Shown here: piece after piece, positions 1,468 to 49,007 of the stretch
Numbering within the stretch: the first letter of the stretch is position 1
How the letters are laid out: each line of letters opens with the position of its first letter
Source of the DNA: Adineta ricciae
Taxonomy: Eukaryota; Rotifera; Eurotatoria; Adinetida; Adinetidae
Reading direction: 5' to 3'
DNA: 64,000 bases
NCBI GenBank assembly: GCA_905250025.1
Contig: CAJNOJ010000013.1
Coordinates: 744,001 to 808,000 of the forward strand
Notes under the pieces: model-generated
Database searches by the model: none
The model's input: the letters and a program-made list of their open reading frames with translations, nothing else
What the model was told of the DNA's origin: nothing
Position numbers and translations under genes: made by a program

Positions 1468-2024
1468 TCAAGATTGAAGTTCGCCAAATTGAGCACAACA
1501 TAATTTACAACGCCAGTCACCTTCAGGTGCTTTTGATAGAGGCGGAGAACAACAATACATATGATAACCACTGAAATTGACGAGAATAAGCAAAGTTGAA
1601 ATGAAATTTTAGACGATATTTACCGATCACAATCATCGCAAAACAAAAGTTCGGAATCATTCTCAGAATTACCACATTCGGTACATGTTTTACATTCCAT
1701 ACATTGCCATGGATAAGTTTTCACTTGTCGAACCATGTTAGGAGTAAACTTGAGACATGTTGGATGTGCGCAACCGCCACAATCCTGCAAGAAAGGAATA
1801 AATAAATAGGAACTTGATTCGAAGTGGCAAAGATTCTCTTATATACCTTGCAAGTAATCATTTGTTCGGGAAGTTTTGTTGTTTTATTCTCATGCTCATC
1901 ACCAGTACAAAAATCACATTGAACGCCTGTTGTAATACCTAATGATGTATCAACATTCGACATGGGTTGCTTCAATTGTTGTTGCTGCTGTTGCTGAAAC
2001 TGCTGCTGCTGTTGTTGTTGTTGC

Positions 2025-2065
<41 letters not shown>

Positions 2066-9620: not shown

Positions 9621-10260
9621 AATCTAAAGGCTACACGTACTATCTTTTTCAATACTAGCAACTTGTTATTTCTGCCTTCATTACTCATTCTTCGACAAAA
9701 TATAAGCATCTAATTTTATCAGAAATAAAATCTATTCATCGAACTTCATTTTCACCAAGTAAATAAGAAGTCAAACACTTTTTCCTTGCTTCACTCTAAT
9801 CATGCCAATGAATCAGCCATACATATCGTAGTATATGTCGAATAAAGTCATACATTTTATACTCATTGAAAGAAAACATCAACAACAGAGACTTATTAAT
9901 CTGAAAAGGCGTCGACAGTTCGTTTTCTTGCAATAGAAACACATGTATACTAATAGAAATCCTATAGATCAGCGAACGAACTATCAGATGAATCATATTT
10001 ATAAGGATACCAAGTTTCTCGTATATATTCGCAAGAAGGTTACATAAATTCTTTTAGTTTTCATGCGATGATTGTATCCAAATGGTTCGATCGTTGTTTA
10101 ATAGCATATAAGAAATCTTCTAAATGATTTTTTGAATATCGTTCGAATTATCGCACCTCTTTCTTGTTCCTGTTCTTGCATTGCGGTCAATATGTGTTAT
10201 TTTTATTGACTCCTTCATTTAACAAGTTGAAAGCAGACTAGTATTTTTCTTCGAATAGAT
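9621..10260. other. Intergenic region upstream of the small heat-shock gene
   Basis: 640 bp, AT-rich. AATAAA occurs at about 9725, shortly after the peptide gene, and could be its polyadenylation signal. I looked for a canonical heat-shock element (inverted GAA/TTC units with two-base spacing) above 10261 and did not find a convincing one. Confidence 0.5.
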
Positions 10261-25449: not shown

Positions 25450-28400
25450 CTAGACTTCTGTTTGAAAAAATGAGGATAATTTCGTTGATTTTTTCCCATT
25501 GACATGCTCTTTTGTTAAATCAGATTCACTTGCATGTCGCAGACGATTGATCATTGTTGTTTTCATTGTTAATTGGCTTGTTTCATTGTTAGTCTGATTG
25601 GTGTTATAGTTGTCGTCATCGTCATCATCGGTATAACGACTATTCCGTCTCACTTTGAGGCTGTCTAATTTTCTCGGATTGATTTTCCACGAAGTTGGAT
25701 TGATCTTCGATATTTTACTTGTTGGCGTTGATGACGAGGGCAATGATGCTAATGTTGAATGTTTGTCATTATCTTGATTCGCATTGCCTTTGAAAAATGA
25801 AGTTGTTCGTGCGTAGGTTGGTGATGAGGAGAGAAGTCGCAATGGTGAACCACTCAAACGAAGACGTTCAATGGTACTCATGCCACCAGTGGAATTTTTG
25901 GATGAAGCTAAATATACGAACGAAAAATGAGATGACTCCTGTTTCTTGAAGTAGGCAATAATTACTTTTAATGATTTTGGCATACACTGGAGCTTTTTGC
26001 AGAGATGAATTTGATGCTCGTATACTAAGCGAACTACCACCATTGAATAATGAACGTTTTCGTTCTCCATTGGAGACAGGCGAGGTCAATAAAGTTTGTT
26101 CGTTATTTGACGAATCGTTCGACGAATGAGTTAATTCGATATCATTCTGATCAACAAGTTTTTCCGCGAGATTCGATAACGAATTGACACAAATTTGATA
26201 AGTATTGGAATGCTTGTCATCATGACCATTGAAGTATTCTAGAAATATACATAAAATAATTGAAGTCTAAGGAAATGCAACTAGAACGTACTTGTTGGTG
26301 ATGAGGGAACTAAAGAAACAAAGAGAAGAAACAGATAAGTCATATGGTGACCAAATAATCAACTTACAGTCAAATAGATCAGGAGATTTAGGATCAACAA
26401 GTGGCATACGTGTTGTGTCTACAAGAGCAATATAATCAGAAGGAATAAGATCAAATTTCGACATACCATAATCAATACTATTGTAATGTGCAAGAAAGTT
26501 ATCTGGAGGGATATTCATTTTTCCAATCGTTGAATAGTATTTTGGATCACTCTGGTATGAGAAAAAAACAGTTCAGACGAAATTCTTCAATGACGGGACT
26601 TACGCGTCGACGATTCAACGATTCATGAGATTCATATTGATGTTTATCAATCACGAGAGCGGATTTGTCATTTGAATCGTTGGTTTGCTAAGAGAATTTT
26701 ACACATTCGAAAGTCTTGCCACTCATTTGATCTTACCTTATCATTAAAATTATTTAATGTTGTTTGCTCAAGATTATTATCAACTAGAGCCATTGTTTCA
26801 ACAGTTTGTTTACCATTAGAATTTCGTTTGATTAACGTTGGCATTGGACTTTCAATTTGATTCGCTGGTGACAACGAAGGTGACGCTTTCTGAATCAGCA
26901 ATGGCGCCGACACTAATGGCTTATCATTGTGAATATTCAGTTTTTTCTTCTTCTCTTTTCGCTGCTGTTGACAATAGATGATCAATGACAGAAATAACAA
27001 GACCACTAATACAAATGTACAAAACGTCACTGCTAGACCAACATATAAAAGATTCTTCGTTGACATAGGCAAATTTCCTAATGATGATATACACGAATAA
27101 GAAACATTAACATCATTTGATGGAATACATTGTTCATTGAATAAACATGGATGACTTTCACATGGTTGTAAATCACGTTGACATTGTCGACCAGTAAAAC
27201 GTGGTTTCAAGCAGTTACATGTGAAACTTGAACCGTACTTCGTTGTTTGACTAACACAGATACCACCGTTATAGCATGGGTGATACAACGAACACAGATC
27301 ATCTTTGTCAGTGTATTGTCTCAGTGTACGCGATTCAATCTCGGCTAGTTGACAACCGGTGTTGGTACCGACATGTTCGATAAATGACTTATTCTCTTGC
27401 TTTTGAAGGTAGATCAATTGAGTGTTCAACGTTAGGTTACCTAGACAGCCATGAAAATCATTGCCAATATAGATTTGTTTCAGTTGATTTGTCGATATTG
27501 GTTGAAACAGTTGAATTCTATTGCTGAAAACATGATCGAGACGAAGAAGATAGTAGAAGTTTTGATTTGTTGGTGTGTAATCAATGGAAAAGTAGATATG
27601 ATGCCAGAGACCATCGTTGATGACGACTTCATTGATTCGAAAGAGAATCTTTCTATTTAGTTCAACATTAACATGATTATCCATGATTTGAATGATTAGT
27701 AGATGTTGTTTCTTTTTCTCGTCAACCGAGATCATCTTCAGCAGTTTACCTTGGCCAACCTGCGTGCGAAATGTGAACGAAATATTCGTATGCTGCGTTA
27801 AATTCATCGATGAGTTCATTCGAACAAAACTGTAACCATCGAATGTCAGAGTATTCGAAGAATCTAAAGCACAGAGCAGATCATTTACTGAAACTCTTCT
27901 CAAAAAGACAAAATTCTTACCGCGACACGTCGGTGAATTAATATTAATACAATTCAACGTTGTTTCCGGCAGAATTTCGTTCTGATTACATGGTTCATCG
28001 ATACACTGACATGTGTACAATGTAGAACTCTCTTCGATACATCTTTCCAATGGCGAACATGGATTAGACGAACATGGTGATTGATAATCTTGCTTGAATT
28101 GACAATGTTGCCCGTAGAAATGATTCAAACAAAGACATTTAATGTTCCATTGATATTTCGGTATCAGACGTTCGTATGTATTGTAATAGAAGTAGTCGTA
28201 CTGATTTTGATACAATTTGATCTGACTGGTACATCGACCGTTGTTTTCACACGATTTCGTATGACATTGGTTAATGGAAATCTTTTCAATGGATTTGATA
28301 TTTGGAATCTTTTCGAAGACATTACTAGAGTTGCGCAAGACGTTATAAAGTAATTTTTTGTGGATATATCGTGGTGGTCGTAGACGGGATGGATACCGAA

Positions 28401-31400
28401 TAACTGCGATGAGTATTTCGATTTGGTACGGAGTTTTCATATCGAATGAATAAAGATGAACATGACGCATGTGAACGCCAACGATTACAGCTAGATTTTC
28501 GCGTAGTAATGGTAATGTATGAATAATGAACTGCTCGTAAGTTGACCGAGGATCGAGATTGACAAGCAAAGATATTGTTCGATCTAACATTTCGCGATCA
28601 ATTGACCAGAGATGTACATCGATGGTTTGAGCTTTTAAGTGAGATTTGATGTCGAGTGGAAGATAAATAATTGTATTGTTGTAAAAATTCATGTTCGATA
28701 TCGGCTGGTCAACGGCAAAGACAGTTAGTTCGATTTGAAATTGTAATAAACGTTGATGTTTCTGTTGCTGAGAGTACAACTGTTGTTGATATGAATTGAA
28801 ATACAACTCCGTTTGGTTATTGGAGATTTGTTTGAGTGAAAACTGTTTATTGGCAAGTAGATTATACGACACAAATTGATAATTGGATTGATTCTGAAGA
28901 GACAATTCACCGAAATTAATCTGAGGATACTTTTCATCAAGATTAATATATCCGTCGATGGTACGTGGAATGAGTGCTGGAAGAAGAACCTGTCGTTGAA
29001 GATAGATGATATGTAAGTAAAGATCAACATAATACGCAGATGATAAGGTTTGATTATCCCAAACACGGATGATCAAATGATCCTCATGGTCGAGAAGAAT
29101 GGGCTCATTGAGGATCAATTCAGTACCGTTTTCATCTTGTCGAAGTTTGTACGATGAAAATGTATCATTGAGAATTTGAAATGTTAAGTTCGATTGATCT
29201 TTATCAATAATTTCGATCTTATGCAGAACGGTATTGACTGATGGGTGATAGAAATAAATCAGCGTAGTGAAGTTCTTTGTTAGAAACTCCGGATAATTAT
29301 CGTTGATATTTCGAATGGAGATTGTCAAATTCAGTGAAGATAATGGGACAGTCTAAAATAGACAGAGAACATCAGGTGAAATTATTGTTCTTCTCAAGTT
29401 TTTGCTTACTTGATTTTCTCGATCTTTGACAACGATTGTAACATTGTATTGACGTGGATCCGTTTCGTAGTCAAAGATTTTACGGCTAATAATCGTACCA
29501 TTTGACTCGAAGATTTGAAAAGCGTTGGTTCTATCGATTAACTCATAGACGAATTCATCGGAACTTTTACCGATTGTACAAACGATTGTTCCGATTGGTT
29601 TGTTCTCGTCGAGAATGCAATTATCTCGATTTTCTAAGTTAAAGTAATTGTTATCATCATTAATTATCGATATAAATACATTTGTTGAGTCAGTTAAATT
29701 AATTCCATCTTCGAATACTTCAACATTCACTGTTATATTCGACATTGTTGTCGGAAGTGATGTTCTCAATCGGATTATTCCTGTTTGTTCATCGATCGTA
29801 AAGAATTCCGTTGAGTTTTGCAAAGAATATCGAAAATTTCCATTCGCCACTGGATCTTCGCTTGTTGCATTCAATTGAAATATATTCGTGTTCGATCGAA
29901 TTGTTTTACTTATGTTAACAGAGTAGTAATTTCTATCGAATTTGGGTCCATGGTCGTTCAAATCGTTGATATGCAGAATTAAGGCGTCAGACAGATAATT
30001 CTCTCGATTGTTTGTGTCAATTGCCATGACTTGATAGCTGAGTTGTGGACCGTAGTGCTCCCGGTTGAGTTGTTCATAGAGAAGAATCGAACCAGTAGTT
30101 TGATCGATGAATATCTGTGAAGAAGAATTTTGTAGGTAAAATACGTAATTCGATTGGAATAGATGATCGATATCGACAAGCTGAATGCGGCCAATATAGA
30201 ATGGAGTAGGGTTGTTTTCAGTCAGATTGTAAGTTAGAGAATTTCGATCGAAAACTATTGGATTATCATTGATATTGATTAACTTAACGATTACTGATAT
30301 GGAGCAATTCAATTCATTCGGTTGTAAATCAATTGAAAATGAATAGAATGCTTTTTGTTCATAGTCTAATCGCGAGTTCGATGTAAGCAGACCTATATTT
30401 TCAAAAGCAAACAGTTTTAGAGGTATTCGGATAGGAAAGTACTACAAACAGACCTGTTTGAGAATTGAGTAGAAATGATTGTGCATCCGAATTCGTCGTA
30501 GGATTAACTTTAAATTGTAATCGATCAATCAACTCAGATGAGTTATTATTAATTGATAGTAATGTCTCTTTAACTGTGCCAATGATCGTTCCTATTGGAG
30601 ATTCTTCTTTGATCATCCACTGAATTGGTATCTAGAAAACAGCGTGCAGTTGTTTTAGTCAACGAAAACGAAATAAAGATAGCTTACCGCTGGACATACG
30701 AAGTATGACCATTTGGGCGTTCGTAGAACCGAAATATTCGTTTGACAATAGCTTAACGGTGACGAACTGATCAGAATAATCAATTGAAAATATTCATTCA
30801 CTGTTTGGTTCAGTAGTGGTGATGTCAAATAAAGTTGTCCGAAATTATTTATCGCAAACAGACCATAGGAATCTCCAGAAAGTATATAATAATTATTCGA
30901 ACTATTCTTATTCAAACTGATTTCTTGTATGATGGTTCCTGAAGTGAATTCACACATTAAAAGTCGAACATTTCTCAATTAATCGTGACTTACCTGGTAG
31001 ACTTCGATCTGAAAGTTGAATTACTTGGTTTGGACACGAGTTGATTTCCGTTGGTATTTGAAATTGCTCTCGTACATTGAATAAGATTTCAATCGAAGCT
31101 GTGCTATTCGCATTTGTTTTGTCATCCATCGCATATACATTCAATTCAATTTTATCCAAATCTTCGATCGATTTCGAATGATAGATAAATCTTAGCATGC
31201 CGTTGGTTTGATTAATAAATAATCCGTAGGAGTTACGTTGTAACTGATAACGAATTGAATTGAAACTCTGTGCAAACACTCGAAACACATCATCGTAATG
31301 GTGATCATAGACATAAAATCGGTAAACATCCGAAGAAAATGTTGGTGCTTGGGTGAAGTTTCCGAAGAGAACTTTCACTTGACTCGATGATACGCTGATC

Positions 31401-34400
31401 TGATCGGTGAGATGTAATTCAAAGAAACACAGATCGGACAGGATCGGAAAAGTTTTGAAGAAAAGTTCATTGGATTGAATGTAGAAGTTTTCGTGACAAT
31501 GATTCTGCGTTAATGATGTCGGAAGGATTTTCAGTGTTAACTTATCGATTGGAAATGTTTCAATAGGAATATTTTCCTTTAATACTTGCTTATCCAGTTG
31601 AAAGTCGTAAGATTTCTTCTCTAAATGAAATGTTCGTTCGACGAAATTGATTTGCACTGATGTTTGAATAACAAAATTCTTCCAATAGGCATTGACGGTC
31701 AGATGGTATCGGTCAGTTGGAACGAGATTTTCTTTGAGCATCAATCGATTTTCCTGGATGTCGAATAGATTTGTTTGATTTTTCAATTGGTACTTCGCCG
31801 ATTTGATCGGTTGGTTGAATGAGTCAACGATTTCAAACTGAAAAATTTCCATCGGGACACTCACTTGAGATGAGATCAGTGAAATATAATACAAATCAGA
31901 GTTAAATCTCGGTTGAGTCGAGTAAACCAATTTAACCTTTGCATAAACGATTTGATGAGCAAGATCTTTGGCTGATGCATAAAATTCGTAGACTGATTTG
32001 GTAAACGAAGTCTTATTCACTTGAATTACACCTGAGCGTGGATCAATTTCGATTCCACTGGATTGAAGATGCAGCTCATAAGTGATCTGATCATTCCGAT
32101 CGATGTCATACGCCGAGATTTGTCCAAGAACGGCTTTTGTTGGATCGTAGTCAAATACATATTCATTCGAAGAGAATTTCGGTTGATTGCCGGAATAGTT
32201 ATTGAATTGTAATTGAATGTAAGTTTTAGTTAAATACAAGCCATCGCTAACAGCAATGTTTAACTGATAGAAATCTTTGTCTAATGATTGATTCGTTCGT
32301 GTCAGAACTCCGCTGGTGTGATTGATTGAAAAGAATCGATGATCGTCTTGATTGAGGAGGTGGTATTTAAGATGAAGATTGTCGGCGAAATCGAGATCAT
32401 TTGCTGAGAATTTGGTGAGAAATGTTTGCGAGGAGGAAAGTATTAAGCTCAATGGAGGATTGAGAAAATTTGGCGGGTGATTATTATAGTCATTGATTGT
32501 TAATTTAAGAATTGATGTTTCGCTGCTCGAACGAAATTTAAGCGAATAGAATGGTTCAGTTAGGTAATTAATAAGTACAATATCACCAGATGTTGGATTG
32601 AGTTTGAACAGATTTCGATTATAATCCTCGAGTGACGAAGAATTTGTATGAAAGACAACTGAACCAGGTGGAAGAATTTCCGAAATGGTTTTCTCATAAA
32701 TGGGCGATGAAAGTTCATATGGATTGATCACATGAATTGTGACATTAATTGTCATGTTCTGTTGATAGATTAGATCGCGAGCAATGATTTGAAAATGTTC
32801 CGAAGTATTTTTATAGAATTCATTGGAAAAGTATTCCAGAGTACCATTGTCTGGATTGAGAAGGTAATATTTCGGATGATCATGACTAAATTCATAGACG
32901 AGATGACTGCGGCTCAAGTCATATGGTTGAGCAATGATTTGGCCGAGAAGAATCGAACGGTTCATGTAGTTAGACAGATTGAGGTGAAATTCGTACGATG
33001 GTTGAGAAAATAATGGTGATTGAGATGAAACGATGTCATATTGAACTAGAGTATTGTTCGGTAGTCTGAATCGACCAGAGTTCTACGTAAAGATGTCAAA
33101 TAAGAAAGGATATGTATTTGAAATGAAATGTTTTACCTCTGCAATATGGTATTTGTCGATGAATTCCGTGTGTAACTGACTTCCATTTCTAATCATTATG
33201 TACGAAACTGTCGCTTGAGTCTTTTCGACGGTTATTAAGCATTTCGAGTTTTCCAATTTAATCAGCAACAAGACATCATCGTCGATAGTTTTGTCTCGAT
33301 TTCTATAGCGTAATAAACCATACTGACGGTCAAGAATGAACAGATTATTGTAATTTAATAATTCAAATGAGTGTCGACGTGTCTGACCACAAATCGGTTC
33401 GGTTTGATTGGTATTCAAGATTTCAACGAAGCCAATCAATTGTCGGTCGGTAGAATAATCCAGATGATTTAGTACACATTCAGATATTTGGTTGATTTCA
33501 TTGATGATGATCATTTGGACACGAGCAATTTGTGAATCATCGTCTTGTATGAGAAAATCGTAGAAATTTCCATTTGTGATAAGTAGTGTTCGATTTCGAA
33601 CGAATAATCTTCCCGTTTTCTCGATGGATATCATCGGCGAGATCTGATCATTCAAAATCGTCCAATTGTTACTCGTTTTATTCAAGTGTCCAATTGTGGA
33701 ATTGTTTACAAATGGTGCAGATAATTTAAATTCATAAATCGATTGAAATGCTCTCTTCTCAACTGGAATTTCACGATTAACAACAAGATTCAAACGTGTA
33801 AATGTAATCAATGAGTGATAATTTGCATAGACAAGAAATGAATATCGCTTCAACAAACTCTCAAACGAATGGTATTTAATTAAACCAGCATATTCATCAA
33901 GTTGAAAGAAGTTCACGTGTGTTTGATTCAATAGATAGTAACTGATATCAAATGAATTTGACAAATTCTTCAAATCGATATGCAATGGTTCTTGTTGATT
34001 GTTGTAAACGAATGCAGACGAACCGAACGAACTATTCATGTAACCCGAATAGATTTCATTTGGAAAGGTGAAGTCTAAGATGTTCATTGAGTCCATAGGC
34101 GTTTGATTATCTTTCGAATGAATGGTGCATTCAGCAAGATTTGATGCTTCGCCATTCAATGGTGTAAATGGATCGAATGCACGAATGGTTAAAGAATTGT
34201 AGGGTTTGTATTGTTGTCCTGTGAGATGATCAATGCTTCTCGAAGGAGAAGATTCGTATGTGAAAAGATATGGAGATATTTTGAGATACGATGGACATGG
34301 AAAATAAATGCCAATATTCGAGATGAATAACGTCACAATTGTGGTAATTGGTTCGGACTGTGATGTGTCAATAATTGTTAAATTTAAGGGATATATATAT

Positions 34401-37400
34401 GAACGTGCATGTGACTCGTCAGTGAGGTAAAGCGATTGGTTTGATAAATCAATCGAGAATAAACCTAGCGGATCACCTAAAAGCGAAGCAAAGTTGAATT
34501 AGTTTCGGTAATTATTGAGAACATTGAAGATGATGGTTTACCTCGGAGAATTTGTGCATTCGATGGGATTCGGTTAATTCCTTCCTCGTCGTAATTAATC
34601 AATTCAAAATTCATCAAATATTTCCGTCGGTTTGCTGCCAATGATGTTTCGAAGATAACTAGATAGTTATCTTGCATAAACTGATAGGATTTCTTAGTTT
34701 GATTTGATAGATTTCTTTCATCAAGAATATTGATATGCAAATTCGTATGTGCAATTTGATAATTATGTTGACAACGATATAGAATCGTTAACAAATGTGT
34801 TTGACTCGCCGAATTCACCAGTGAATTCATGACTGTAATTGAGCCTGACGATGGATTGATACGAAATAAGTCTTTCGATTTAATTCGTTCGACTGTATCA
34901 ATAGAATAAGAACAATCGCTGGCAGGATTTTCAATTGATAGACGAGCGATTTCAGCACCGATTGGAATATTTCGTGAGATGGAACTGTAATAATCCCTTT
35001 GAGAAAATTCCATAGATGGAACGGAGTTGTTTACGATACGAATAAGAACTTTAATCGTATTCATATTCATCCAGTCATTCGTAACATTGATACGAAGATC
35101 AATGAGATTCGTTTGATTGACTAGTTCGGCAATAGGACGAATGAGAATCAGTTGACCCGTTTGGAAATCTACATGAAAATATCGCGTATGGCGAATATCT
35201 CCAATCATGATAAACCATTGGGTTGTATTATGACGATTATTCATGCCGAGATGTAATATTGTTGAACCAACTTCCGTGGTTGTTAGCAAATCGATATTGA
35301 TGGTTGAATCAATTGATGTTAACGAAGATTTATTAACATCAATACTTGGTAAAATTTGTATTTTGATCGGCAGAGAAACACGACTTGAAACGATACGCCA
35401 TTTTCCGCGGCTTGATGTCTCATCTTCTTCGTTTTCATTTGCATCCGATAGAATATCATATCGATATGCAACGGTAAATGCTTCAACCTAAAATACAAAA
35501 GTTATTGAGCAAATTTCTCCAATGTGCAAAAGTCGAGTCTTACATTAAATTCGTATGTTGTATAAGCTTTCAACGGTTGTTTTGCAGCAATGTATCCTGT
35601 TTGTCGATTGATGACAAAATGTTGATTTGAGTCGACAATCCGGTAGCGTATTTCCAGTTTTTTGCTATAGACTTTCGTATCCAAAAGTGCAACGATTTGA
35701 AATAGACGTTGCCGCAATCTGCCACTCTGACGATCGATTTCAATCATATCAATGTTATAATTCGGTGCCGAGAAAAACTTCGGTATCAATTGCCGTCGTC
35801 GAATCAGATGAATATTAACATAACAATGCGCAGATAACTTATACTGTGTATCGAATGCTACCACAGTTAGAAGATAATCGGACTTTAATCGACGATTATT
35901 ATTCTGATTCGATGAGAGTAAACTCAGCGAACCAGTTCGTTGATCGATCGAGAAGAGTTTCTCATTGTCTACGATGGAATATTGTAGATGAGAATTCTTA
36001 TTCAACGAAACCGCTTCGACGCGATGAAAAGCATGTTGACTTGCGTAATCATAGACTTTGATATTTTGATAAACATCTACGCATTGTGGGAGATAAAAGT
36101 TTTCCTGTCGTATCGATATATGAAGATGAACAAATGTATATGCTGGATGAGCACGATAACGAGTTAAACGTATTGTCAGCCAATATGATGATTTTGATAA
36201 ACCAATTAACGATTGAGTTAGACGAAGGTAACCTTAAACAAAGATTTCTGTTATTTCGAATTGTCTCATTATCGAATGTAACTCCCGAAGGAAGACACAC
36301 TTCCGTTTCCCTTTTATTCGAATTTGATAGTACATTAATTTACGCAAGTAGACTGAGAAATTTATGTAGAACTAAAACAGGAAATTAGAATGCCGAGAAC
36401 ACAAAAAAAAACATTCATGTCATTATTTGATCTGTTCAACTGTTCTTAAAGGTTATCGTTCGAAAAGAACCTGGCCATTCGATGACCTTATTTGCTAGTC
36501 ATGCGAACAAACGTCATCTGATCGTATCAATCAAATTCGTCTAGTTCTCGTCTAATCAGAAGATTATCATATATTGATAATGTAATTCGAATCGTTTGAC
36601 ATTCAATCGATTTAATCAATTCGAACAAATATTTTCTGAGAAAAGCCAAACGAGTGACAAATAATTGAATTATTAGTTCGAATAATATTGTTTTTTTTCT
36701 CGACTGATCGTCATTGACCAGATGTCCTCGATAATGTCGAACTTTTCTTTTTGATGAACATGTGTTCCCTTTCGAACATGCATCTAATGACTATTTCTTA
36801 TCATCTATCGATTAGAAAATGAGTTCGATGGGTAATTAGTGTCTGATGAAGAATAACTCAGCAGAAGAAATGAATGAGTGAGAAACAGAAGCAGCTGCCT
36901 TTCTCACAATAGAAATCGATTGATGACATGTAAAACAACAACAGCAGCAGCAGCAATCTCTTTCGTTCTATTCAGACATGCATCAAACCGACATCGGTCA
37001 CCACGCGCATCACCACGAGGGATTAAAGGAAAGGAAATTAGAATTGACTGTATAATGATGTTCACCATTGGTCACGCGCATGCATGCAGACATTCTAATT
37101 GTCGTTTCATTATATTGAGACGACAAATATACATATTGTTATGATGTAAGATTAGGAGAAGAAATGAGAATATAATACGAAAGAGAAGAATAAAATAAAC
37201 AATTGACAAACGAGACTTATTAGTCGATGAAAATCACACTCAGAAGTCTGAATATGGATTAAATTTCTTAAATCCTTTTTTGATTGAGAATGAAGACAAA
37301 GCGAATAACGTCGAAGTCATCCTACCTTGCTGATCGATGGCAAATGACGATTTAATTCCATCGTGAATGATTTCAATGAAATCAATTGTTGATGCCAACA

Positions 37401-40400
37401 ATTGCAAACGACGATAAACATTCGTTAGGATTGAGCCAGCTGCTAATGATTCATTAATAGTTAATCCATATGCCGGTTCATGTAAAAGTATAGGCTCTTG
37501 AGCATCAGGAAATGATTTAACATAAATATTAATTGTTGTTTGATTCTTATGTAAACCATCCGTCACTTGAACAGTTACATTGAACACTTGATTAACGAGA
37601 CGATGTAACTGATGTTTCAAGCGAAGATGACCTGTTTGCGTATTAATTGTTACATATGGATTTGGGCTGAGCGAATAGATTAGCTGATCGGTTTTATCAG
37701 CGTCAATCGCGTAGATTTGCCCGAATATGGAATAACGTGGCATATCCGAAAAAAGATCAAAGACATACTTGTCGACTGAGAATTGTGGAGTGTTATCATT
37801 GGTATCGTTGATGAGAACATGAACAGTTGTACATATCGATTGCAATTGTGGTTGAAGACCTTGATCCGATGCGAGAATATGCAAATCGATTGCAGAATAC
37901 TCTTCGTAATCAACCGATTTTATGCAATCAAGTTGTCCAGTTAGCACATCGATAGAAAAATATTGGTTGTAATTCAACAACGAATAATGAATTGTTCCAT
38001 TTTCACCTGTGATCAAAGAAGGAATGAATGAATGTGGAAGAGGACAAGTTCTTACCTAGATCAGGATCGAATGCTTGGATTTGTAGGAGATTTTTTTCTA
38101 TCCGATTTTCATTTAAATAGATTCTCGAATGAAATAATGAACATGTCGGTATGTTATCATTAATATCGGTTATATGAATGATGATCAAGATCTTTTGATA
38201 AAACTTCTTGGTATATTCGAAATTGATTAATGACCTGCTTTTCTTTTCACAATGATAACGTTCAGATAATTTCATCGAATAGATCGATTTGAATTTTAAT
38301 TCAATTTCAAACACGTATCGATTTTGTTTCTCGCGGTCGAGTCGATCGATCAGTTTCAAAGTTTTCGTATTTTGATCAATTATAAATGGAACGTTCGTAT
38401 CATTGATCGTATAGAAAAATAAATTATCATCTTCATCATTGATATTCAATGGAAATGAATCTGATTCAATCTTCAAACGACCGATAACCGTATTGATCTG
38501 AGCATCTTCTGAGACAGAGTACGAACTGCTATTCTCTCGAAAGCCAATATTTAGAAAAACAGTGTCGCTGCTCGATGATGACGGCGTTGTGTAAACACTA
38601 AAAGCGAAAGACAAACGACTTGCAGGTAGAACATCGTTCAATAAATGTATAGAAATTTTTCTCCACAGGGCATAGGCGAGTGTTGTAAGGAGAGTGTCTC
38701 AATGAAAATTTTGTTAACTTACTTTTGTTCGGGAACAATTGAACTCATTGTCGATGTGCTTGTCATCAAGAAACTCGATGTGGTTTTCTTTCTCCAACGT
38801 CTTGAATAAGCGCGCGTTCTTCCTAAATCTCGTTTTGATATTTTCGACGAAAGATCCAAACGAACATCTATACGACTTTCTAAGCTTATCGGTTGTCCCC
38901 AATCGAAAACAAGAATTTGTAGAGTTGCCATCAAATTCGACCGAAATGACTCTTTTCCTCTTAGCATCAATGTTCCATTGTTTGGATCGAGTAGGAATGG
39001 ACACAAAGTTTGACAATTCAATAATCGATACGTTATTCGTCCATTTGTTTCCTTGTTCTGATCGAGATCGTATGCTTGAAATTGATATGGTAATTGAACT
39101 AATTCCATCGGTGTGCTATTTCGAAACATTGGCCGATGTTTATTGATTTCTTTCACGTGAAGTTGTAGATTTGTTTCAATGGAGTATCGTCGATTGAATA
39201 ATTGAATATTGGCTTGAAGATCCAATGTATAATTTCGATATTCTAGACGTTCTGCTACGCGTAGAATACCAGTTTTCGAATCGAGATAGAACTGAAGATA
39301 TTTATCGTCATTTAATAGTTTGTAATTGATTGTTAATGATTGATCTTCATAGAGATTTGCATATGCAAGTTCAATACGTGTTATAAATGAATCGACAGGT
39401 AGATTCTCATCGAGAGAGATGATCTTCATTGGTTTAAAATGAAAATTGTATTCATTAAAATCGATTCGAGGAACGATATGATAATTTGCATATTGACATC
39501 GTCGTTGATGTTGATTGAAACAGATTAAAAATTGAAGATTATATTCTTCAATCGAATATTTATTCAAATAGACATTGTTTCCTTGGAGAAAGAGATTTTT
39601 CACATTTCCAGACGAATTTCCCAGAAGAAAAATGTCGAAGTCTTTTCCTTCCGGTTGAGTATTGATAGTTAAGATTGGTTGATGAAGGTTTAGACGATGA
39701 AATGATTTGCGTTCGAATATCTTAATTTCATAAGAAGAGATCATTTCGCTAACCTCAATCGTCTTATTGAATATCGTTTGAAAATATAGCGAAGTTCTTG
39801 GCGAATTGTTAAAACTTAATTTCACACGCGCTTTCGTTTTCATGTTATTATCCACGAGCCGTTTCTGATAACGATCATACGCATAGACATCGAATTCATA
39901 AAGCGTTGTTAAATTCTCTTTCGTGATCAGATACAAATCACCTGTAAATGGATGAAGAGAAAATGTTTCATTTAATGACGATGCTAATTCATAAAGTATT
40001 TGAGCATGTTGAATTTCATCAGCGTCACTTGCATGAATTCGTAAAAGTGCTTGCTCAATTGCAATTGATTGAGTCAAAAACGTTTGCTCGTAAATATCCA
40101 TATCAAACACACCATCATTATCATTCGAATCAGCAACGCGCAGACGAACCTATGAACGAGAGAAAGAGAAGTGTGCAGTTTATAACTTCGCTAACATAAA
40201 ACTCTTACTTCTGTTTGTTCGCTTTGATTTTCTTGTGTCGTAACGATATTGGCTTGAATACGTAGTGTATAAACATCTTGATATTCTCGATTAATATCAA
40301 ATGGTCGTGTTATATTTAGAATAAGAAAATAAAAATCTGCTAAACGTTTACTCTTTACTTCAAATAAACCATTATTCGTATCATCGACGAGATGATAACT

Positions 40401-40589
40401 AAGCGATTTAATGTTTGATGTTCGGTAGATGCCAATCGGTATTCGATTTGAGTAGAGAAATAAGGAACTAGACAGGGTATTTTCTTGACACCATAGTTCA
40501 TAGTTCGACGAAGTAAAAAAGTGTGGCTTGTTATCAGCAAATATAATTGTCAATAAAGTACAAAGAATGGAGATTTGTAATGAAGACAT
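25450..40589 (-). CDS. Fat-like giant cadherin
   Basis: One gene of 17 exons: 40589-40209, 40149-38723, 38597-38056, 38006-37326, 36232-35544, 35487-34542, 34476-33137, 33082-30994, 30938-30688, 30631-30454, 30392-29410, 29352-26737, 26687-26604, 26551-26368, 26309-26292, 26238-25966, 25907-25450. The total is 13,140 nt and the frame closes at every junction (4379 aa; human FAT1 is about 4590). Signal peptide (LQISILCTLLTIIFA), then a long series of cadherin repeats with linkers such as DTNDNTPQF, DLNDHGPKF and NINDNYPEF; many linkers are degenerate (EINKHRPMF, DYNNHPPNF). Then EGF modules (about 28270-28000), laminin G (about 27900-27380), EGF (about 27290-27170), one membrane helix (about 27055-26970) followed by a basic stop-transfer, and a Ser/Asn-rich tail ending TEV, a class I PDZ ligand. 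The EGF-LamG-EGF-TM order is that of Fat/Fat-like proteins, which act in adhesion and planar polarity. Exon 15 is only 18 nt. Intron 4 (1093 nt) is the one long intron. Confidence 0.9.
36233..37325. other. Long intron 4 of the Fat-like cadherin gene
   Basis: The donor (CAA G|GTAGG) at 37326/37325 and acceptor (TTTAAG|GT TAC) at 36233/36232 join in frame, giving Gln-Gly-Tyr-Leu. At 1093 nt this is about 20 times the usual intron here. It contains AGC/GCA runs near 36940-36955. The duplicated segment begins inside this intron, at 37060. Confidence 0.8.
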
Positions 40590-42277
40590 ACATAGGAAGA
40601 TAAAAATGAATGTGAAAAGTTTTTAAACAAATATAAATCTGAAAATGAAATCAAATGTTATTTGGCAATTCGTCGTTTTTTCTTGTGACATATTCATAAA
40701 TACATTCATATGTATTCCACTAAGAAAGGAAAAGATGTATGTATATTAAACCGGCGATGAACTGGACAATCGCGTTCGTTTGCAAGAAAGACAGAGGGAG
40801 AAGAGAGAAAGAAGAAAAAGAAAAATATATCGACGACCAGTTCGCTAACGTCGCCCGTTTTGTTCAACTTCTATTCATTCTTTTCCTCTACTCTGTCTCT
40901 CTCTCTCTCTCCTTCTCTCTTTCTCTCTAGTCGGAACGTATGAAAGATGTAAAGCGAAAGACATACAGAGAGAAAAATGCTTGGAGTATGTGTCAATGAG
41001 CTAATTAGGAGCACAAATCATATCTCGGCAAATATCTAGTTCAATCGAAATAAGAAGAAGAAAAAGAAAAGAATTGCGTACTGAATTGGATCGACTTCTT
41101 TTCAAATCATAAGATTAAGTTTTTCTTCTTCCTCACGATTCTCTCAACATATCCATGTGAACATTTCAAAACAGACGCATGATGTTTGATTGTTGTTATT
41201 GTTGAGAACAGACATGCACAGACCAATGATTATGATGATGATGGACGAGCGTCGACATGAGCATCTCCTATCTTATTACTGGTCGTTTGGATGTGTGTCT
41301 ACATGTAATAGATGCATGCACTATCTAATAAGACGCGTGTCGAACAAATTGCTACCTTCGTCCTATTCGGAAGGGTCACCTTGATCCAGTGAATAGGGGC
41401 TGGGCGAGACATCTTTATCGGTATGTGTTTGTCGCGTCACACGCCATCGTTTCGTATTTCTTTACTCGTTCTCGATCGCGATTGTTCAGACACCATTGAA
41501 CATGAGAAATTCTACGTCTGCTATTTGCATTGTTTACCTATAAAACAAAAGCATGCAAGCACATCGGCTCGTTTTTATGCGATACACATATATTCCCGCG
41601 TCGTTATACAAGCGTTTTATTGATTGACTAGTATAATACATGATATCTAAATAGTCCTATATGTAAGCACATGAATATCTCTTGGTATAAGAAATAATTG
41701 ATAACGAAATCTAACAATATGTCTTATCTATTTCTATCATATAAACAAGTATGAACGACATGATGTGAGATAATTTCATTCTTTTTTTTTTACAGTCACA
41801 CATCTCTCTTAGGGATAAATCGTATGTGTCGTATTTACCACCTGCCCAATGATTAAATTAGTGTGAAAATCTCGACAATGTCAATGGCGAGGTAGAAATA
41901 TGTGGGATATATTTGCACACAATATCCTTCTAATGCGAAAAAATTCTCTTGTAGAAATACAAATCGTTTTGTTTGTCATATCGCCTTTTTTTGTGTAACT
42001 TGGATTATGACAAGACTTCACCGACATGTTTAGAGTAAAATATTTTCTTTCGTTTTGTTGTTTATTCATGTTCATGAAACCTTTCTTACTGTTCTTTCGA
42101 GTTCATTTAAAAGTCTAGCACAACAAAACAAAATTTGTGCACGTTTAATTTCATTCACTGGTCTCATTCTTCTTGACGAATTCCATTAAGAAGACGGGCT
42201 TCTCAATTGAACAACTAAATAAGCACTCAACTAACCACTTCTTTTTTTTCTTCTTCTTCTTCTTCTTCTCTCTCTCT
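37060..42277. repeat. Direct repeat, copy A (5.2 kb)
   Basis: From 37060 to 42277 the sequence matches 42279-47497 base for base over long stretches, in the same orientation, with a few percent of substitutions and small indels by eye. It spans part of intron 4, exons 4-1 of the Fat-like gene and about 1.7 kb of 5' flank. It ends in a CTT/CT low-complexity run directly at the N. Below 37060 the sequence is unique. Confidence 0.95.
40590..42277. other. 5' flank of the Fat-like gene, copy A
   Basis: About 1.7 kb upstream of the cadherin start. Contains a CT-rich microsatellite at about 40887-40929 and a CTT/CT run at 42241-42277. Open frames of 60-65 codons are shared with copy B but have no family resemblance; similarity of the copies explains their conservation. 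The promoter of the cadherin gene should be here. Confidence 0.5.
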
Positions 42278-42278
42278 N
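42278..42278. other. Single ambiguous base (N) at the junction of the two copies
   Basis: The only N in the window. It lies exactly where copy A's 5' flank, in a CT repeat, meets the intron-4 end of copy B. A one-base gap at such a point looks like an assembly or scaffolding join. Confidence 0.95.
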
Positions 42279-45200
42279 GTTCACCATTGGTCACGCGCAT
42301 GCATGCAGACATTCTAATTGTCGTTTCATTATATTGAGACGACAAATATACATATTGTTATGATGTAAGATTAGGAGAAGAAATGAGAATATAATACGAT
42401 AGAAAAGAATAAAATAAACAATTGACAAACGAGACTTATTAGTCGATGAAAATCACACTCAGAAGTCTGAATATGGATTAAATTTCTTAAATCCTTTTTT
42501 GATTGAGAATGAAGACAAAGCGAAGAACGGCGAAGTCATCCTACCTTGCTGATCGATGGCAAATGGCGATTTAATTTCATCGTGAACGATTTCAATGAAA
42601 TCAATTGTTGATGCCAACAATTGCCAACGACGATAAACATTCGTTAGGATTGAGCCAGCTGCTAACGATTCATTAATAGTTAATCCATATGCCGGGTCAT
42701 GTAAAAGTATAGGCTCTTGAGCATCAGGAAATGATTTAACATAAATATTAAGCGTTGTTTGATTCTTATGTAAACCATCCGTCACTTGAACAGTTACATT
42801 GAACACTTGATTAACCAGACGATGTAGCTGATTTTTCAAGCGGAGATGACCTGTTTGCTTATTAATTGTTACATATGGATTTGGGCTGAGCGAATAGATT
42901 AATTGATCGGTTTTATCAGCGTCAATCGCATAGATTTGCCCGAATATGGAATAACGCGGCATATCCGAAAAAAGATCAAAGACATACTTGTCGATCGAGA
43001 ATTGTGGAGTGTTATCGTTAGTATTGTTGATGAGAATATGAACAGTTGTACATATCGATTGCAATTGTGGTTGAAGACCTTGATCCGATGCGAGAATATG
43101 CAAATCGATTGCAGAATACTCTTCGTAATCAACCGATTTTACGCAATCAAGTTGTCCAGTTAGCACATCGATCGAAAAGTATTGGTTGTAATTCAACAAT
43201 GAATAATGAATTGTTCCATTTTCACCTATGATCAAAGAAGGAATGAATAGTAGAGAATGTGGTGGAGGGAAAGTTCTTACCCAGATCAGGATCGAATGCT
43301 TGGATTCGTAGGAGATTTTTTTCTATCCGATTTTCATTTAAATAGATTCTCGAATGAAATAATGAACATGTCGGTATGTTATCATTAACATCGGTTATAT
43401 GAATGATGATCAAGATCTTTTGATAAAACTTCTTGGTATATTCGAAATTGATTAATGAGCTGCTTTTCTTTTCACAATGATAACGTTCAGATAATTTCAT
43501 TGAATAGATCGATTTGAATTTTAATTCAATTTCAAACACGTATCGACTTTGTTTCTCGCGGTCGAGTCGACCGATCAGTTTCAAAGTTTTCGTATTTTGA
43601 TCAATTATAAACGGAACGTTCGTATCATTGATCGTGTAAAAAAATAAATTATCATCTTCGTCATTGATATTCAATGGAAACGAATCCGATTCAATTTTCA
43701 AACGATCGATAACCGTATTGATCGGAGCATCTTCTGAGACAGAGTACGAACTGCTATTCTCTCGAAAGCCAATATTTAGAAAAACAGTGTCGCTGTTCGA
43801 TGGTGATGGCGTTGTGTAAACACTAAAAACGAAAGACAAACGACTTGCAGGTAGAACATCGTTCAATAAATGTATAGAAATTTTTCCCCACAGGGCATAG
43901 GCGAGTGTTGTAAGGAGAGTGTCTCAATGCAAATTTGTTAACTTACTTTTGTTCGGGAACAATTGAACTCATTGTCGATGTACTTGTTATCAAGAAATTC
44001 GATGTGGTTTTCTTTCTCCAACGTCTTGAATAAGCGCGCGTTCTTCCTAAATCTCGTTTTGAAATCTTCGACGAAAGATCCAAACGAACGTCGATACGAC
44101 TCTCTAAACTTATCGGTTGTCCCCAATCGAAAGCAAGAATTTGTAAAGTTGCCATTGAATTCGACCGAAACGACTCTTTTCCTCTTAACATCAATGTTCC
44201 GTTGTTCGGATCGAGTAGAAATGGACACGAAGTTTGACAATTCAATAACCGATACGTAATTCGCCCATTCGTTTCCTTATTCTGATCGAGATCGTATGCT
44301 TGAAATTGATATGGTAATTGAACTAATTCCATCGGTGTGCTATTTCGAAACATTGGACGATGTTTATTGATTTCTTTCACGTGAAGTTGTAGATTTGTTT
44401 CAATGGAGTATCGTCGATTGAATAATTGAATATTGGCTTGAAGATCCAATGTATAATTTCGATATTCTAGACGTTCTGCTACGCGTAGAATACCAGTTTT
44501 CGAATCGAGATAGAACTGAAGATATTTATCGTCATTTAATAGTTTGTAATTGATTGTTAATGATTGATCTTCATAGAGATTTGCATATGCAAGTTCAATA
44601 CGTGTTATAAATGAATCGACAGGTAGATTCTCATCGAGAGAGATGATCTTCATTGGTTTAAAATGAAAATTGTATTCATTAAAATCGATTCGAGGAACGA
44701 TATGATAATTTGCATATTGACATCGTCGTTGATGTTGATTAAAACAGATTAAAAATTGAAGATTATATTCTTCAATTGAATATTTATTCAAATAGACATT
44801 GTTTCCTTGAAGAAAGAGGTTGTTCACATTTCCAGACGAATTTCCCAGAAGAAAAACGTCGAAGTCTTTTTCTTCCGGTTGAATATTAATAGTTAAGATT
44901 GGCTGATGAAGGTTCAGACGATGAAATGATTTGCGTTCGGATATCTTGATTTCATAAGAAGAGATCATTTCGCTAACTTCAATCGTCTTATTGAACATCG
45001 TTTGAAAATATTGCGAAGTTCTTGGCAAATTGTTAAAACTTAATTTCACACGCGCTTTCGTTTTCATATTATTATCCACGAGCCGTTTCTGATAACGATC
45101 ATACGCATAGACATCGAATTCATATAGCGTTGTTAAATTCTCTTTCGTGATCAGATACAAATCACCTGTAAATGGATGAAGAGAAAATGTTTCATTTAAT

Positions 45201-47497
45201 GGCGATGCTAATTCATAAAGTATTTGAGCATGTTGAATTTCATCAGCGTCACTTGCATGAATTCGTAAAAGTGCTTGCTCAATTGCAATTGATTGAGTGA
45301 AAAACGTTTGCTCGTAAATATCCATATCAAACACACCATCATTATCATTCGAATCAGCAACTCGTAGACGAACCTATGAACGAGAGAAAGAGAAGTGTGC
45401 AGTTTTATAACTTCGCTAACATAAAACTCTTACTTCTGTTTGTTCGCTTTGATTTTCTTGTGTCGTAACGATATTGGCTTGAATACGTAGTGTATAAACA
45501 TCTTGATATTCTCGATTAATATCAAATGGTCGTGTTATATTTAGAATAAGAAAATAAAAATCTGCTAAACGTTTACTCTTTACTTCAAATAAGCCATTAT
45601 TCGTATCATCGACGAGATGATAACTAAGCGATTTAATGTTTGATGTTCGGTAGATGCCAATCGGTATTGGATTTGAGTAGAGAAATAAGGAACTGGATAG
45701 GGTATTTTCTTGACACCATAGTTCATAGTTCGACGAAGTAAAAAAGAGTGACTTGTTATCAGCAAATATAATTGTCAATAAAGTACAAAGAATGGAGATT
45801 TGTAATGAAGACATACATAGGAAGATAAAAATGAATGCGAAAAGTTTTTAAACAAATATAAATCTGAAAATGAAATCAAATGTTATTTGGTAATTCGTCG
45901 CTTTTTTCTTGTGACATATTCATAAATACATTCATATGTATTCCACTAAGAAAGGAAAAGATGTGTGTATATTAAACCGGCGATGAACTGGACAATCGCG
46001 TTCGTTTGCAAGAAAGACAGAGGGAGAAGAGAGAAAGAAGAAAAAGAAAAATATATCGACGACCAGTTCGCTAACGTCGCCCGTTTTGTTCAACTTCTAT
46101 TCATTCTTTTCTTCTACTCTGTCTCTCTTCTTCTCTCTTTCTCTCTAGTCGGAACGTATGAAAGAAGTAAAGCGAAAGACATACAGAGAGAAAAATGCTT
46201 GGAGTATGTGTCAATGAGCTAATTAGGAGCACAAATCATATCTCGGCAAATATCTAGTTCAATCGAAACAAGAAGAAGACAAAGAAAAGAATTGCGTACC
46301 GAAATGGATCGACTTCTTTTCAAATCATAAGATTAAGTTTTTCTTCTTCCTCACGATTCTCTCAACATATCTATGTGAACATTTCAAAACAGACGCATGA
46401 TGCTTGATTGTTGTTATTGTTGAGAGCAGACATGCACAGACCAATGATTATGATGATGATGGACGAGCGTCGACATGAGCATCTCCTATCTTATTACTGG
46501 TCGTTTGGATGTATGTCTACATGTAATAGATGCATGCACTATCTAATAAGACGCGTGTCGAACAAATTGCTACCTTCGTTCTCTTTGGATGGGTCACCTT
46601 GATCCAGTGAATAGGGGCCGGGCGAGACATCTTTATCGGTATGTGTTTGTCGCGTCACACGCCATCGTTTCGTATTTCTCTACTCGTTGTCGATCGCGAT
46701 TGTTCAGACACCATTGAACATGAGAAATTCTACGTCTGCTATTTGCATTGTTTACCTATAAAACAAAGGCATGCAAGCACATCGGCTCGTTTTTATACGA
46801 TACATATATATTCCCGCGTCGTTATACAAGCGTTTTATTGATTGAATAGTATAATACATGATATCTAAATAGTCCTATATGTAAGCACATGAATATTTCT
46901 TAGTATAAGAAATCATTGATAACGAAATCTAACAATATGTCTTATCTATTTCTATCATATAAACAAGTATGAACGACATGATGTGAGATAATTTCTTTCT
47001 TTTTTTTTAACAGTCACACATCTCTCTTAGGGATAAATCGTATGTGTCGTATTTACCACCTGCTCAATGATTAAATTAGTGTGAAAATCTCGACAATGTC
47101 AATGGCAAGGTAGAAATATGTGGGATATATTTGCACACGATATCTTTCTAATGCGAAAAAATTCCCTTGTAGAAATAGAAATCGTTTTGTTTGTCATAAC
47201 GCCTTTTTTTGTGTAACTTGGATTATGACAAGACTTCACCGACATGTTTAGAGTAAAATATTTTCTTTCGTTTCGTTGTTTATTCATGTTCATGAAACCT
47301 TTCTTACTGTTCTTTCGAGTTCATTTAAAAGTCTAGCACAACAAAACAAAATTTGTGCACGTTTAATTTCATTCACTGGTCTCATTCTTCTTGACGAATT
47401 CCATTAAGGAGACGGGCTTCTCAATTGAACAACTAAATAAGCACTCAACTAACCACTTCTTTTTCTTCTTCTTCTTCTTCTTCTTCTCTCTCTCTCT
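42279..47497. repeat. Direct repeat, copy B (5.2 kb)
   Basis: Second copy of 37060-42277, nearly the same length (5219 vs 5218 bp). It runs past the matching CTT/CT repeat into unique sequence at about 47498. The copies differ in microsatellite length: the CT tract at about 46125-46150 is shorter than its partner at 40887-40929. Confidence 0.95.
42545..45814 (-). pseudogene. Fat-like cadherin exons 1-4, second copy (5' part only)
   Basis: Four exons, 45814-45434, 45373-43947, 43822-43281 and 43225-42545, have exactly the lengths of exons 1-4 of the complete gene (381, 1427, 542, 681 nt). All splice sites are intact and all frames open. After the intron-4 donor the sequence continues for 266 bp to the N, and no further cadherin exon follows on this side, so alone it encodes only about 1010 residues with no membrane anchor. 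Exon 2 differs from its partner at about 15 amino acids of 463, mostly conservative or semi-conservative. There is no stop or frameshift, so it is not a decayed pseudogene; it is either the other allele misplaced in tandem or a very young partial duplication. It is labelled pseudogene only because the gene is incomplete here. Confidence 0.8.
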
Positions 47498-49007
47498 TTT
47501 ATCGCTCATCACCATCAGCAGAGAAAAGCACACAGAGGGATAGAGAAGTTGCTCGGTCGAGGGTCAGTTTCGTGATATGATAGTAAAAGAAGAGCAACTG
47601 AGAAAAAAAAGAAGAATAAGATACGTACGTTTACCGTTGAAGTAACATATGGGAGTTTATGACGTAATAGTAATAAGTTTTAGTATGATGATAGTTGGCA
47701 AGTATTGCTTTATAATCCTCAACGGTGTGTACATCCGACCGCCTTTGTAACTTCGTTTTACGAACCATGCGCGCGTGCCTGTATTATCAAGGATATTTGT
47801 TTGGGTTCGATGATGATGATGCGATTACGCAAGGCACTTGCACACGAGCGAACAAACGCTAGGAATGAATGAACAAGTACAGCTCGGTTGAGGAGATTAT
47901 GCATCGATATACGCATTTTCTATGCTTCTCTTACTCGGTACTATGATTATTAGTTTGTGTGAAATAAATTTTTCAATAGACAATGATCATCACATTTAGC
48001 ATCACAGTTGGAATTCTGCCGACATATGTACATAGATGGGCAGGTGATGTGATAAAAGATAGGGTGACGGAGAAAAAGTCGATTAGTGTTAAGTGATTGC
48101 TTGTGATGACTAGTGGACAATCGGTAGCAATCGTTGGACATGCCGTGAAGATTGTTTACGGTCAAGGCTAGATGCGTGCATGTCGTTGATTAAAGTAACA
48201 TGTGCAAGTGAATGAATATATGAACGAGTGAAGGGTGAGAGTTAGCAGGAAAAAGGATAATGTCTCCAACATTGTCATTTCCCAAAGGAATCACGCAGTT
48301 TTGTTCGAAAGAAACAAGAGCAAGACACCTGATCTCGGATGTACATGTGTATATAGCGATTTTCATCCATGTTGCATGCTGAGTGATGATCGATTGTGAG
48401 CGGATCTGACTGACTGACATTAGCTTGTATATTTTGTGACCGCTCAATTGACATTTTGCACTAAAGAGAAAAGAGAAAGAATCGAATAACTAAGTAAGGA
48501 GAAGCAAGCAGATGGTCACCATCCTCACTCCTATTATACGCATTGTCAATCAATTCAAGGAGAGATACGGAGAGGGAGAGTAAATGTACCGTAGGATAAG
48601 CAATTCTTTCCTGATTGTTTATTTATTCGAATTAGAAAATGCAACTGAATGATCTCTGTGCAACAACAAGTGGCACTTATTACAGTTACACATGTGTACT
48701 CATCACTCTATGCTGACCAAGGTCATCCTTTTTTTGTTTGAAGACAAGAGAAGAGAAGTAGTCTGGCGTAAACTATGAGCTTTTTTCTGCTTCCTTGTCT
48801 CGTTTTAATATGAAATGGGGTCGACCGGATGTTTAACGGTCACACATGTCAAATAGCTCAATCAAAACCGATTGACATGTGACAAAACATCATAGAAAGA
48901 AAAAAACAGCTAGTTAACAATTCTTTGAAGGAAAAGAAAACAATCTTGATTTTATTACATTTTCTTTCTCTTATTGATAAATTTTATTAAAAAAAAGCTC
49001 ATATTCG
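45815..49007. other. 5' flank (copy B to 47497) and unique upstream sequence
   Basis: 3.2 kb between the cadherin copy B start and the stop of the next minus-strand gene. Up to 47497 it repeats copy A's flank. From 47498 it is unique and AT-rich, with purine-rich stretches (about 48540-48580) and no supported gene. This unique part is the likely true continuation of the cadherin 5' region. Confidence 0.5.

What the first reader, a model, noticed from the sequence alone, without database searches (positions are those of the whole stretch)
37060..47497. Probable false tandem: two haplotypes of one 5.2 kb segment joined at a single N
Copies A (37060-42277) and B (42279-47497) are the same length to within a base. 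Copy A continues in its intron 4 into the rest of the gene, but its 5' flank stops at a CT repeat at the N. Copy B begins inside the same intron right after the N, and its 5' flank continues into unique sequence. Collapsing A onto B yields one intact gene with both flanks. All four exons of B are open, as expected of an allele. A real tandem duplication would not need an N at its breakpoint.
Basis: partly seen in the sequence, partly recalled or inferred. Interest (0 to 1): 0.85.

Follow-up and report, generated by a model that had tools for sequence, protein, structure and literature searches.

The report
False tandem repeat from swapped haplotypes
The apparent doubling of the front end of a cadherin gene is almost certainly an assembly error in which the two allelic versions of one gene were glued end to end, leaving the partner scaffold with a matching hole; it is an ordinary artefact, but one that could be mistaken for a real duplication.

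Summary
Window 37060-42277 (A) and 42279-47495 (B) are 96.8% identical and abut exactly at the window's only N, 42278. The false-tandem reading is supported, mainly from outside the window. Scaffold C65 of the same assembly is the homologous haplotype, collinear at about 92-94% on both sides. It has a single N, at 318005, exactly where A and B are both missing. Three pieces of B, 3,964 of 5,219 bp, match closely only at A and B. So two haplotypes, two copies, both on one scaffold, and a hole in the other. L' (C65) ends 893 bp before B begins; A ends 259 bp before R' (C65) begins. The natural joins are A to R' and L' to B; the assembly has A-N-B and L'-N-R'. A/B dS is 0.10 and omega 0.15, with no stops or coding indels, as for alleles. 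The genome fits the bdelloid Adineta ricciae (inferred). Collapsing A onto B may leave a haplotype switch. A real reciprocal unequal exchange would give the same layout; the N at both junctions argues against it, but only reads can exclude it.

The parts
37060..42277 (-). Copy A: intron-4 part, exons 4-1 and 5' flank of a cadherin-family gene; ends at the N
42278..42278 (.). Single N joining copy A to copy B (C13:786278); only non-ACGT base in the window
42279..47497 (-). Copy B: same segment, 96.8% identical; begins inside intron 4 directly after the N
36167..37059 (.). Site P (893 bp): present between L and A, absent from C65; L' of C65 ends at its left edge and B's left end corresponds to its right edge
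   Evidence: single match in the genome
47498..47756 (.). Site Q (259 bp): present between B and R, absent from C65; A's right end corresponds to its left edge and R' of C65 begins at its right edge
40209..40589 (-). Exon 1, copy A (ATG inferred at 40589)
45434..45814 (-). Exon 1, copy B (ATG inferred at 45814)
38723..40149 (-). Exon 2, copy A
43947..45373 (-). Exon 2, copy B; Pfam Cadherin, 2 stretches
38056..38698 (-). Exon 3, copy A (5' edge not resolved; open frame given)
43281..43923 (-). Exon 3, copy B (5' edge not resolved; open frame given)
37326..38006 (-). Exon 4, copy A
42545..43225 (-). Exon 4, copy B; Pfam Cadherin, 2 stretches
26671..36233 (-). Rest of the cadherin gene as open frames (exon 5 onward; further Cadherin domains, a laminin G match below its cut-off); the frames tested, 29353-36233, occur once on C13 and once on C65, where exon 5 is cut at window 36166

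Best explanation
A and B are the two alleles of one 5.2 kb segment, the 5' end of a single cadherin-family gene, in an assembly that keeps both haplotypes apart at this locus. Hap 1 (L through P into A) broke at site Q, at a CT microsatellite. Hap 2 (B through Q into R) broke at site P, in intron 4/exon 5. That left four contig ends. The scaffolder joined the wrong partners with single-N gaps: A to B on C13 (a false tandem) and L' to R' on C65 (a false deletion). Shown: sequence layout, copies found, divergence, and an N at both junctions. Inferred: that contigs are internally phased, so that C13 and C65 swap haplotypes here; and that scaffolding software, not biology, made the joins.
For: C65 is collinear with C13 on both sides (window -13736 to 36166 at 93.9%, 47757 to 68093 at 91.5%, then further blocks at 92.6-93.1%) and has its only N in the 100 kb fetched exactly between the two. 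Site P matches only itself in the genome; for site Q only its own place matches, C65 matching from window 47757 on. Three pieces of B, 3,964 of 5,219 bp, match only A and B closely, the rest being 64-69% on C1; all candidates of these searches were scored. A search with the whole of A found no further close copy but left 1 of 8 candidates unscored and did not list C13. A/B: dS 0.10 (SE 0.014), dN 0.015, omega 0.15 over 940 codons, no stops, no gap codons; the neighbouring exons of the same gene between C13 and C65 give dS 0.18, omega 0.12 over 2145 codons. The 6 A/B gaps fall outside my exon limits. If one copy had been a neutral fragment since the split, at least 112 nonsynonymous changes would be expected against 34 seen. 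The paralogue on C1 has exons 1-4 once, directly followed by exon 5. Published A. ricciae homologues: mean KS 0.14 (PMC5916493, section 7), median divergence 4.6% (passages).
Against: A/B divergence (2.9% substitutions; dS 0.10) is lower than most of the C13/C65 flank (often about 5% or more per 2 kb; dS 0.18 in the same gene), although L/L' falls to dS 0.11 in the exon piece next to the break, and substitutions are 2.4% and 1.65% in the short partial bins (167 and 243 bp) at the two edges. A single N on C65 hides about 6.4 kb of missing sequence, so the N is not a size estimate there. No reads or depth were available. Phase across P and Q is not proven. Only 2 N runs were seen in 294 kb, both at this locus, so how single Ns behave elsewhere in this assembly was not sampled.
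Confidence: 0.94

Rival explanations
1. Real reciprocal unequal exchange between homologues: breaks at Q on hap 1 and at P on hap 2 were repaired with the wrong partners, giving a true tandem on C13 and a true deletion on C65, both kept in a clone without meiosis.
For: It predicts the same layout as seen: both copies on one scaffold and none on the other. The likely host is a desiccation-tolerant bdelloid, a group apparently without meiosis (PMC5916493, abstract), where breakage and repair are discussed (passages). The selection test does not exclude a recent event.
Against: Both junctions carry an N and these are the only 2 N runs in the 294 kb examined; a real junction would normally be read through. 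The 893 and 259 bp missing from C65 need extra loss beyond a clean reciprocal exchange.
Confidence: 0.03
2. Real tandem duplication on the C13 haplotype, with the C65 copy simply not assembled (three copies in the animal).
For: The L-X-X-R layout is what a tandem looks like, and the C65 N hides unknown sequence.
Against: The N sits exactly at the junction. It needs the third copy to have been left out of the assembly on C65 alone. Copy B would be a 3'-truncated gene, yet A/B evolution is constrained. An apparent local duplication about 91-97 kb away on C13 has no N.
Confidence: 0.02
3. Gap-filling artefact: a scaffold gap was filled from the left with one allele and from the right with the other until one N remained.
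For: Gap filling was part of the published A. ricciae pipeline (PMC5916493, passages). It gives the same allelic conclusion.
Against: Both fills would have to pass each other over the full 5.2 kb; nothing in the sequence tested here separates this from a plain contig join.
Confidence: 0.01

Closest known systems
Heterotype false duplication, false gene/exon gain (Ko et al. 2022, PMC9516828; passages seen)
   Same: Both alleles placed next to each other on one scaffold, part of a gene duplicated, a gap between the copies; the passages give ZBTB11 and NPNT in zebra finch as examples.
   Different: Here the partner haplotype is also in the assembly and shows the reciprocal hole, so the error looks like an exchange of partners and not only a left-over allele.
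Scaffolding-related breaks and linked homologous blocks in Adineta assemblies (Nowell et al. 2018, PMC5916493; section 9 read)
   Same: Homologous copies on one scaffold as a tandem, with a scaffold N; the authors say that many breaks span Ns and that some may be scaffolding errors. They report 2 tandem cases in A. ricciae.
   Different: Whether this locus is one of their cases is unknown; it covers part of one gene, whereas their blocks are runs of collinear genes.
True tandem (partial) gene duplication
   Same: L-X-X-R layout.
   Different: N at the exact junction and loss of the segment from the homologue.

Membership tests
Heterotype false duplication | Gap between the duplicated pair on one scaffold | tested here: met
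   N at 42278 exactly between the copies
Heterotype false duplication | Copies differ as alleles do | tested here: met
   dS 0.10 against 0.18 for C13/C65 in the same gene (0.11 in the nearest piece), omega 0.15 and 0.12; published homologue mean KS 0.14, SD 0.036
Heterotype false duplication | Other haplotype lacks its copy in the assembly | tested here: met
   C65 N at 318005 replaces window 36167-47756; three pieces of B, 3,964 of 5,219 bp, match closely only at A and B
Heterotype false duplication | Half read depth on each copy | not testable with these tools
   no reads
Heterotype false duplication | One-copy read k-mers; discordant pairs at the gap | not testable with these tools
   no reads
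True tandem duplication | Continuous sequence across the junction | tested here: not met
   N at the junction
True tandem duplication | Relaxed constraint on a long-standing 3'-truncated copy | tested here: not met
   34 nonsynonymous changes against at least 112 expected if one lineage were neutral; does not bear on a recent event
Adineta ricciae (bdelloid) genome | GC, homologue divergence and a diverged collinear paralogue as published | tested here: inconclusive
   Window GC 36.0% (from base counts), C13/C65 substitutions mostly 4-8% per 2 kb (range 2.2-10.6, short edge bins left out), C1 paralogue with synonymous differences near saturation, against published 35.6% GC and 4.6% median and ohnologue KS 1.27. 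Assembly size 130.5 Mb in 1033 sequences matches neither published row exactly: 174.5 Mb in 4125, 135.6 Mb in 4302.
Adineta ricciae (bdelloid) genome | Ribosomal RNA sequence | not tested
   search did not complete

The most novel reading that the evidence does not exclude
The layout is real: a reciprocal unequal exchange between homologous chromosomes, with wrong ends joined after two offset double-strand breaks, left a duplication on one homologue and the complementary deletion on the other, both kept in the same clone without meiosis.
Probability: 0.03. Interest if true: 0.75.

Novelty: not a real feature. Interest (0 to 1): 0.15.

Why it matters
As biology, little: it is one gene with two alleles. 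As a caution it is useful. Breaks in collinearity and homologous copies on one scaffold were read in the A. vaga 2013 assembly as signs of life without meiosis (PMC5916493, section 9), and this locus shows how partner swapping at contig ends can make a tandem and a matching deletion at once. The sign to look for is two single Ns at homologous places, one flanked by a full dovetail overlap and the other by a hole of the same segment. An annotation of this assembly could gain a false truncated cadherin from C13 and lose the 5' end of the gene on C65 (inference; no annotation was seen).

Tried and rejected
Chance similarity: rejected, 5.2 kb at 96.8% with both ends exactly at the N.

A clean k-mer collapse of identical haplotype stretches at P and Q as the cause of the breaks: left open. 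L/L' are identical only for the last 7 bp before the break and R/R' for the first 10 bp after it, with A/B identical for the first 121 bp; this neither shows nor excludes that P and Q are identical in both haplotypes.

Reading the single N as the scaffolder's mark for a negative gap (recalled for SSPACE-type tools): no support found. The two papers opened after the search gave no passage stating it (search; passages), and the C65 N hides about 6.4 kb, which does not fit that meaning.

A survey of other single Ns in the assembly: could not be done beyond 294 kb, which held 2 N runs, both at this locus.

Which of A or B belongs with which flank: not decidable without reads.

Full report
What is there. 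The window has one N, at 42278. On its left lies copy A (37060-42277), on its right copy B (42279-47495, or 47497 with the last CT). They are 96.8% identical in direct orientation and fill the space up to the N. The window is C13:744001-808000 of a 130.5 Mb assembly in 1033 sequences. The segment holds exons 1-4 and the 5' flank of a minus-strand cadherin-family gene: Pfam Cadherin in exons 2, 4 and 5 and in the frame at 30950-33082, no Pfam match in exon 1 or the frame at 33083-34498, exon 3 not scanned. Exon 5 onward lies to the left, once. Copy B starts about 270 bp into intron 4. The coding cores of exons 1-4 are open in both copies, and six inferred splice sites keep their GT/AG in both; the start of exon 3 was not resolved.

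The homologous scaffold. A search with the left flank found scaffold C65 at 95% over window 30000-36166. I fetched 100 kb of C65 and 80 kb more of C13, later 30 kb more of C13. Where both were held, the two are collinear: window -13736 (the end of the C65 piece held) to 36166 matches C65:368000-318006 at 93.9%, and window 47757 to 68093 matches C65:318004-297634 at 91.5%, followed by blocks up to window 94000 with small insertions and short repeated stretches. Between the two, at C65:318005, there is one N. So C65 has a single N where C13 has all of 36167-47756, both copies included. The exon 1-4 proteins have no orthologous match in this stretch of C65, only one at 34% to another cadherin repeat, while exon 5 is present from residue 22 on.

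Accounting. Three pieces of B (42279-43000, 43300-45400, 46300-47440; 3,964 of 5,219 bp) were searched in the whole genome with all candidates scored: each matches B itself, A at 97%, and, for the first two, C1 at 64-69%. A search with the whole of A listed only weak or short matches, the longest at 65-67% on C1, but left 1 of 8 candidates unscored and did not list C13 itself. The 893 bp between L and A (site P) match only themselves. The 259 bp right of B (site Q) have no second copy; C65 begins to match at 47757. The tool warns that it scores only the best candidates and skips simple repeats. Four contig ends therefore meet in two pairs: L' ends and B begins at P; A ends and R' begins at Q. 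L runs unbroken through P into A, and B unbroken through Q into R. If contigs are internally phased, hap 1 is L-P-A-(259 bp missing)-R' and hap 2 is L'-(893 bp missing)-B-Q-R. The assembly instead joins A to B and L' to R'. On this reading each piece is used once and each haplotype has one gene. If a contig switched haplotype inside P or Q the phase would differ, but A and B would still be alleles.

Divergence and selection. A/B: 940 codons, dS 0.101 (SE 0.014), dN 0.015, omega 0.15, no stops and no gap codons. L/L', the next exons of the same gene between C13 and C65: 2145 codons, dS 0.181, dN 0.022, omega 0.12, one gap codon, with dS per piece, from far to near the break, 0.21, 0.22, 0.09, 0.21, 0.16, 0.18 and 0.11. 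The lower A/B value is in line with the piece beside it, though below the gene's average; this is the main mismatch with the allelic reading. Over 2 kb bins C13/C65 differ by 2.2-10.6% in substitutions, with 2.4% and 1.65% in the short partial bins at the break. Had one copy been a neutral fragment since the split, at least 112 nonsynonymous changes would be expected against 34 seen (Poisson P 5e-18). That rejects an old, decaying truncated duplicate, not a recent event. The six A/B gaps lie outside the coding parts by my exon limits.

Outgroup. C1:692733-702438 (offsets plus 688000) carries one collinear copy of the tested exons, 44-56% identical in protein over the main matches, with exons 1-4 once and the exon 4 match followed by the exon 5 match within about 40 bp. 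Synonymous differences are near saturation (dS from 1.3 upward, not computable for some exons, by a crude method). A 7 kb piece of C1 had no listed relative closer than C13 and C65 (7 of 7 candidates scored). This looks like a bdelloid ohnologue, but that is inference.

Organism. GC 36.0% (from the base counts), haplotypes about 5% apart or more, and a strongly diverged collinear paralogue fit Adineta ricciae: GC 35.6%, median homologue divergence 4.6% (PMC5916493, passages), mean KS 0.14 for homologues and 1.27 for ohnologues (section 7); allelic heterozygosity 5.5% (PMC7953838, passages). Assembly size and sequence number match neither published row exactly: 174.5 Mb in 4125 scaffolds and 135.6 Mb in 4302 (PMC7943196, passages). 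The ribosomal RNA search did not complete. I treat the species as likely, not shown.

Why an artefact and not biology. The published A. ricciae pipeline used Platanus, SSPACE, GapFiller, SSPACE-LongRead, two RNA-based scaffolders and Redundans (PMC5916493, passages). Its authors warn that many collinearity breaks span Ns and that some may be scaffolding errors, and report two tandem cases of linked homologous blocks (section 9). Ko et al. list gaps between the copies among the main features of false duplications (PMC9516828, passages). Both junctions here carry an N, and these are the only two N runs in 294,000 bases examined: 174 kb of C13, 100 kb of C65, 20 kb of C1. An apparent local duplication elsewhere on C13 (684216-685986 against 688276-690408, 89-95%, about 91-97 kb from copy A) has no N, so the assembly can run through similar sequence without one; whether that duplication is real was not tested.

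The reading that remains open. A reciprocal unequal exchange between homologues would put both copies on one homologue and none on the other, with flanks swapped, just as seen. In a desiccation-tolerant clone this is conceivable. It needs an N at both junctions by accident and extra loss of 893 and 259 bp on C65. I give it 3%.

Verdict. The added points are the reciprocal hole on C65 and that the error is probably a change of partners, which a simple collapse would not undo. Interest is low as biology and moderate as a diagnostic for assembly checks.

Noticed in passing
C65:318005 (L016 position 5): Single N on the homologous scaffold that replaces the whole duplicated segment; exons 1-4 of the cadherin gene are absent from the C65 stretch held, so its annotation there would lack the 5' end.
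   Followed up: yes
C13:684216-685986 and C13:688276-690408: An apparent local direct duplication (two blocks, 89% and 95%) without any N, outside the window.
   Followed up: no
window 54568-54663 and 63109-63204: 96 bp inverted match at 79%; the right copy lies in a rhodopsin-type 7TM receptor frame (63104-63850, Pfam 7tm_1), and a frame at 52635-53705 has a 7tm_1 match below its cut-off, so this may be a small receptor cluster.
   Followed up: partly
window 10231-11544: Open frame with an HSP20/alpha-crystallin domain.
   Followed up: no
window 1977-2102: Imperfect TGC/TGTTGTTGCTGC repeat inside a long open frame (1724-2326, minus strand), perhaps a glutamine-rich tract.
   Followed up: no
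C13/C65 along the window and its flanks: Haplotype divergence varies from about 2% to over 10% per 2 kb, with low values at the break and the highest bins at 58-60 kb and 64-68 kb.
   Followed up: no
C1:698001-705000: The paralogous (ohnologue-like) copy has no listed close partner in the assembly, unlike C13/C65; its allele may be collapsed or missing.
   Followed up: no
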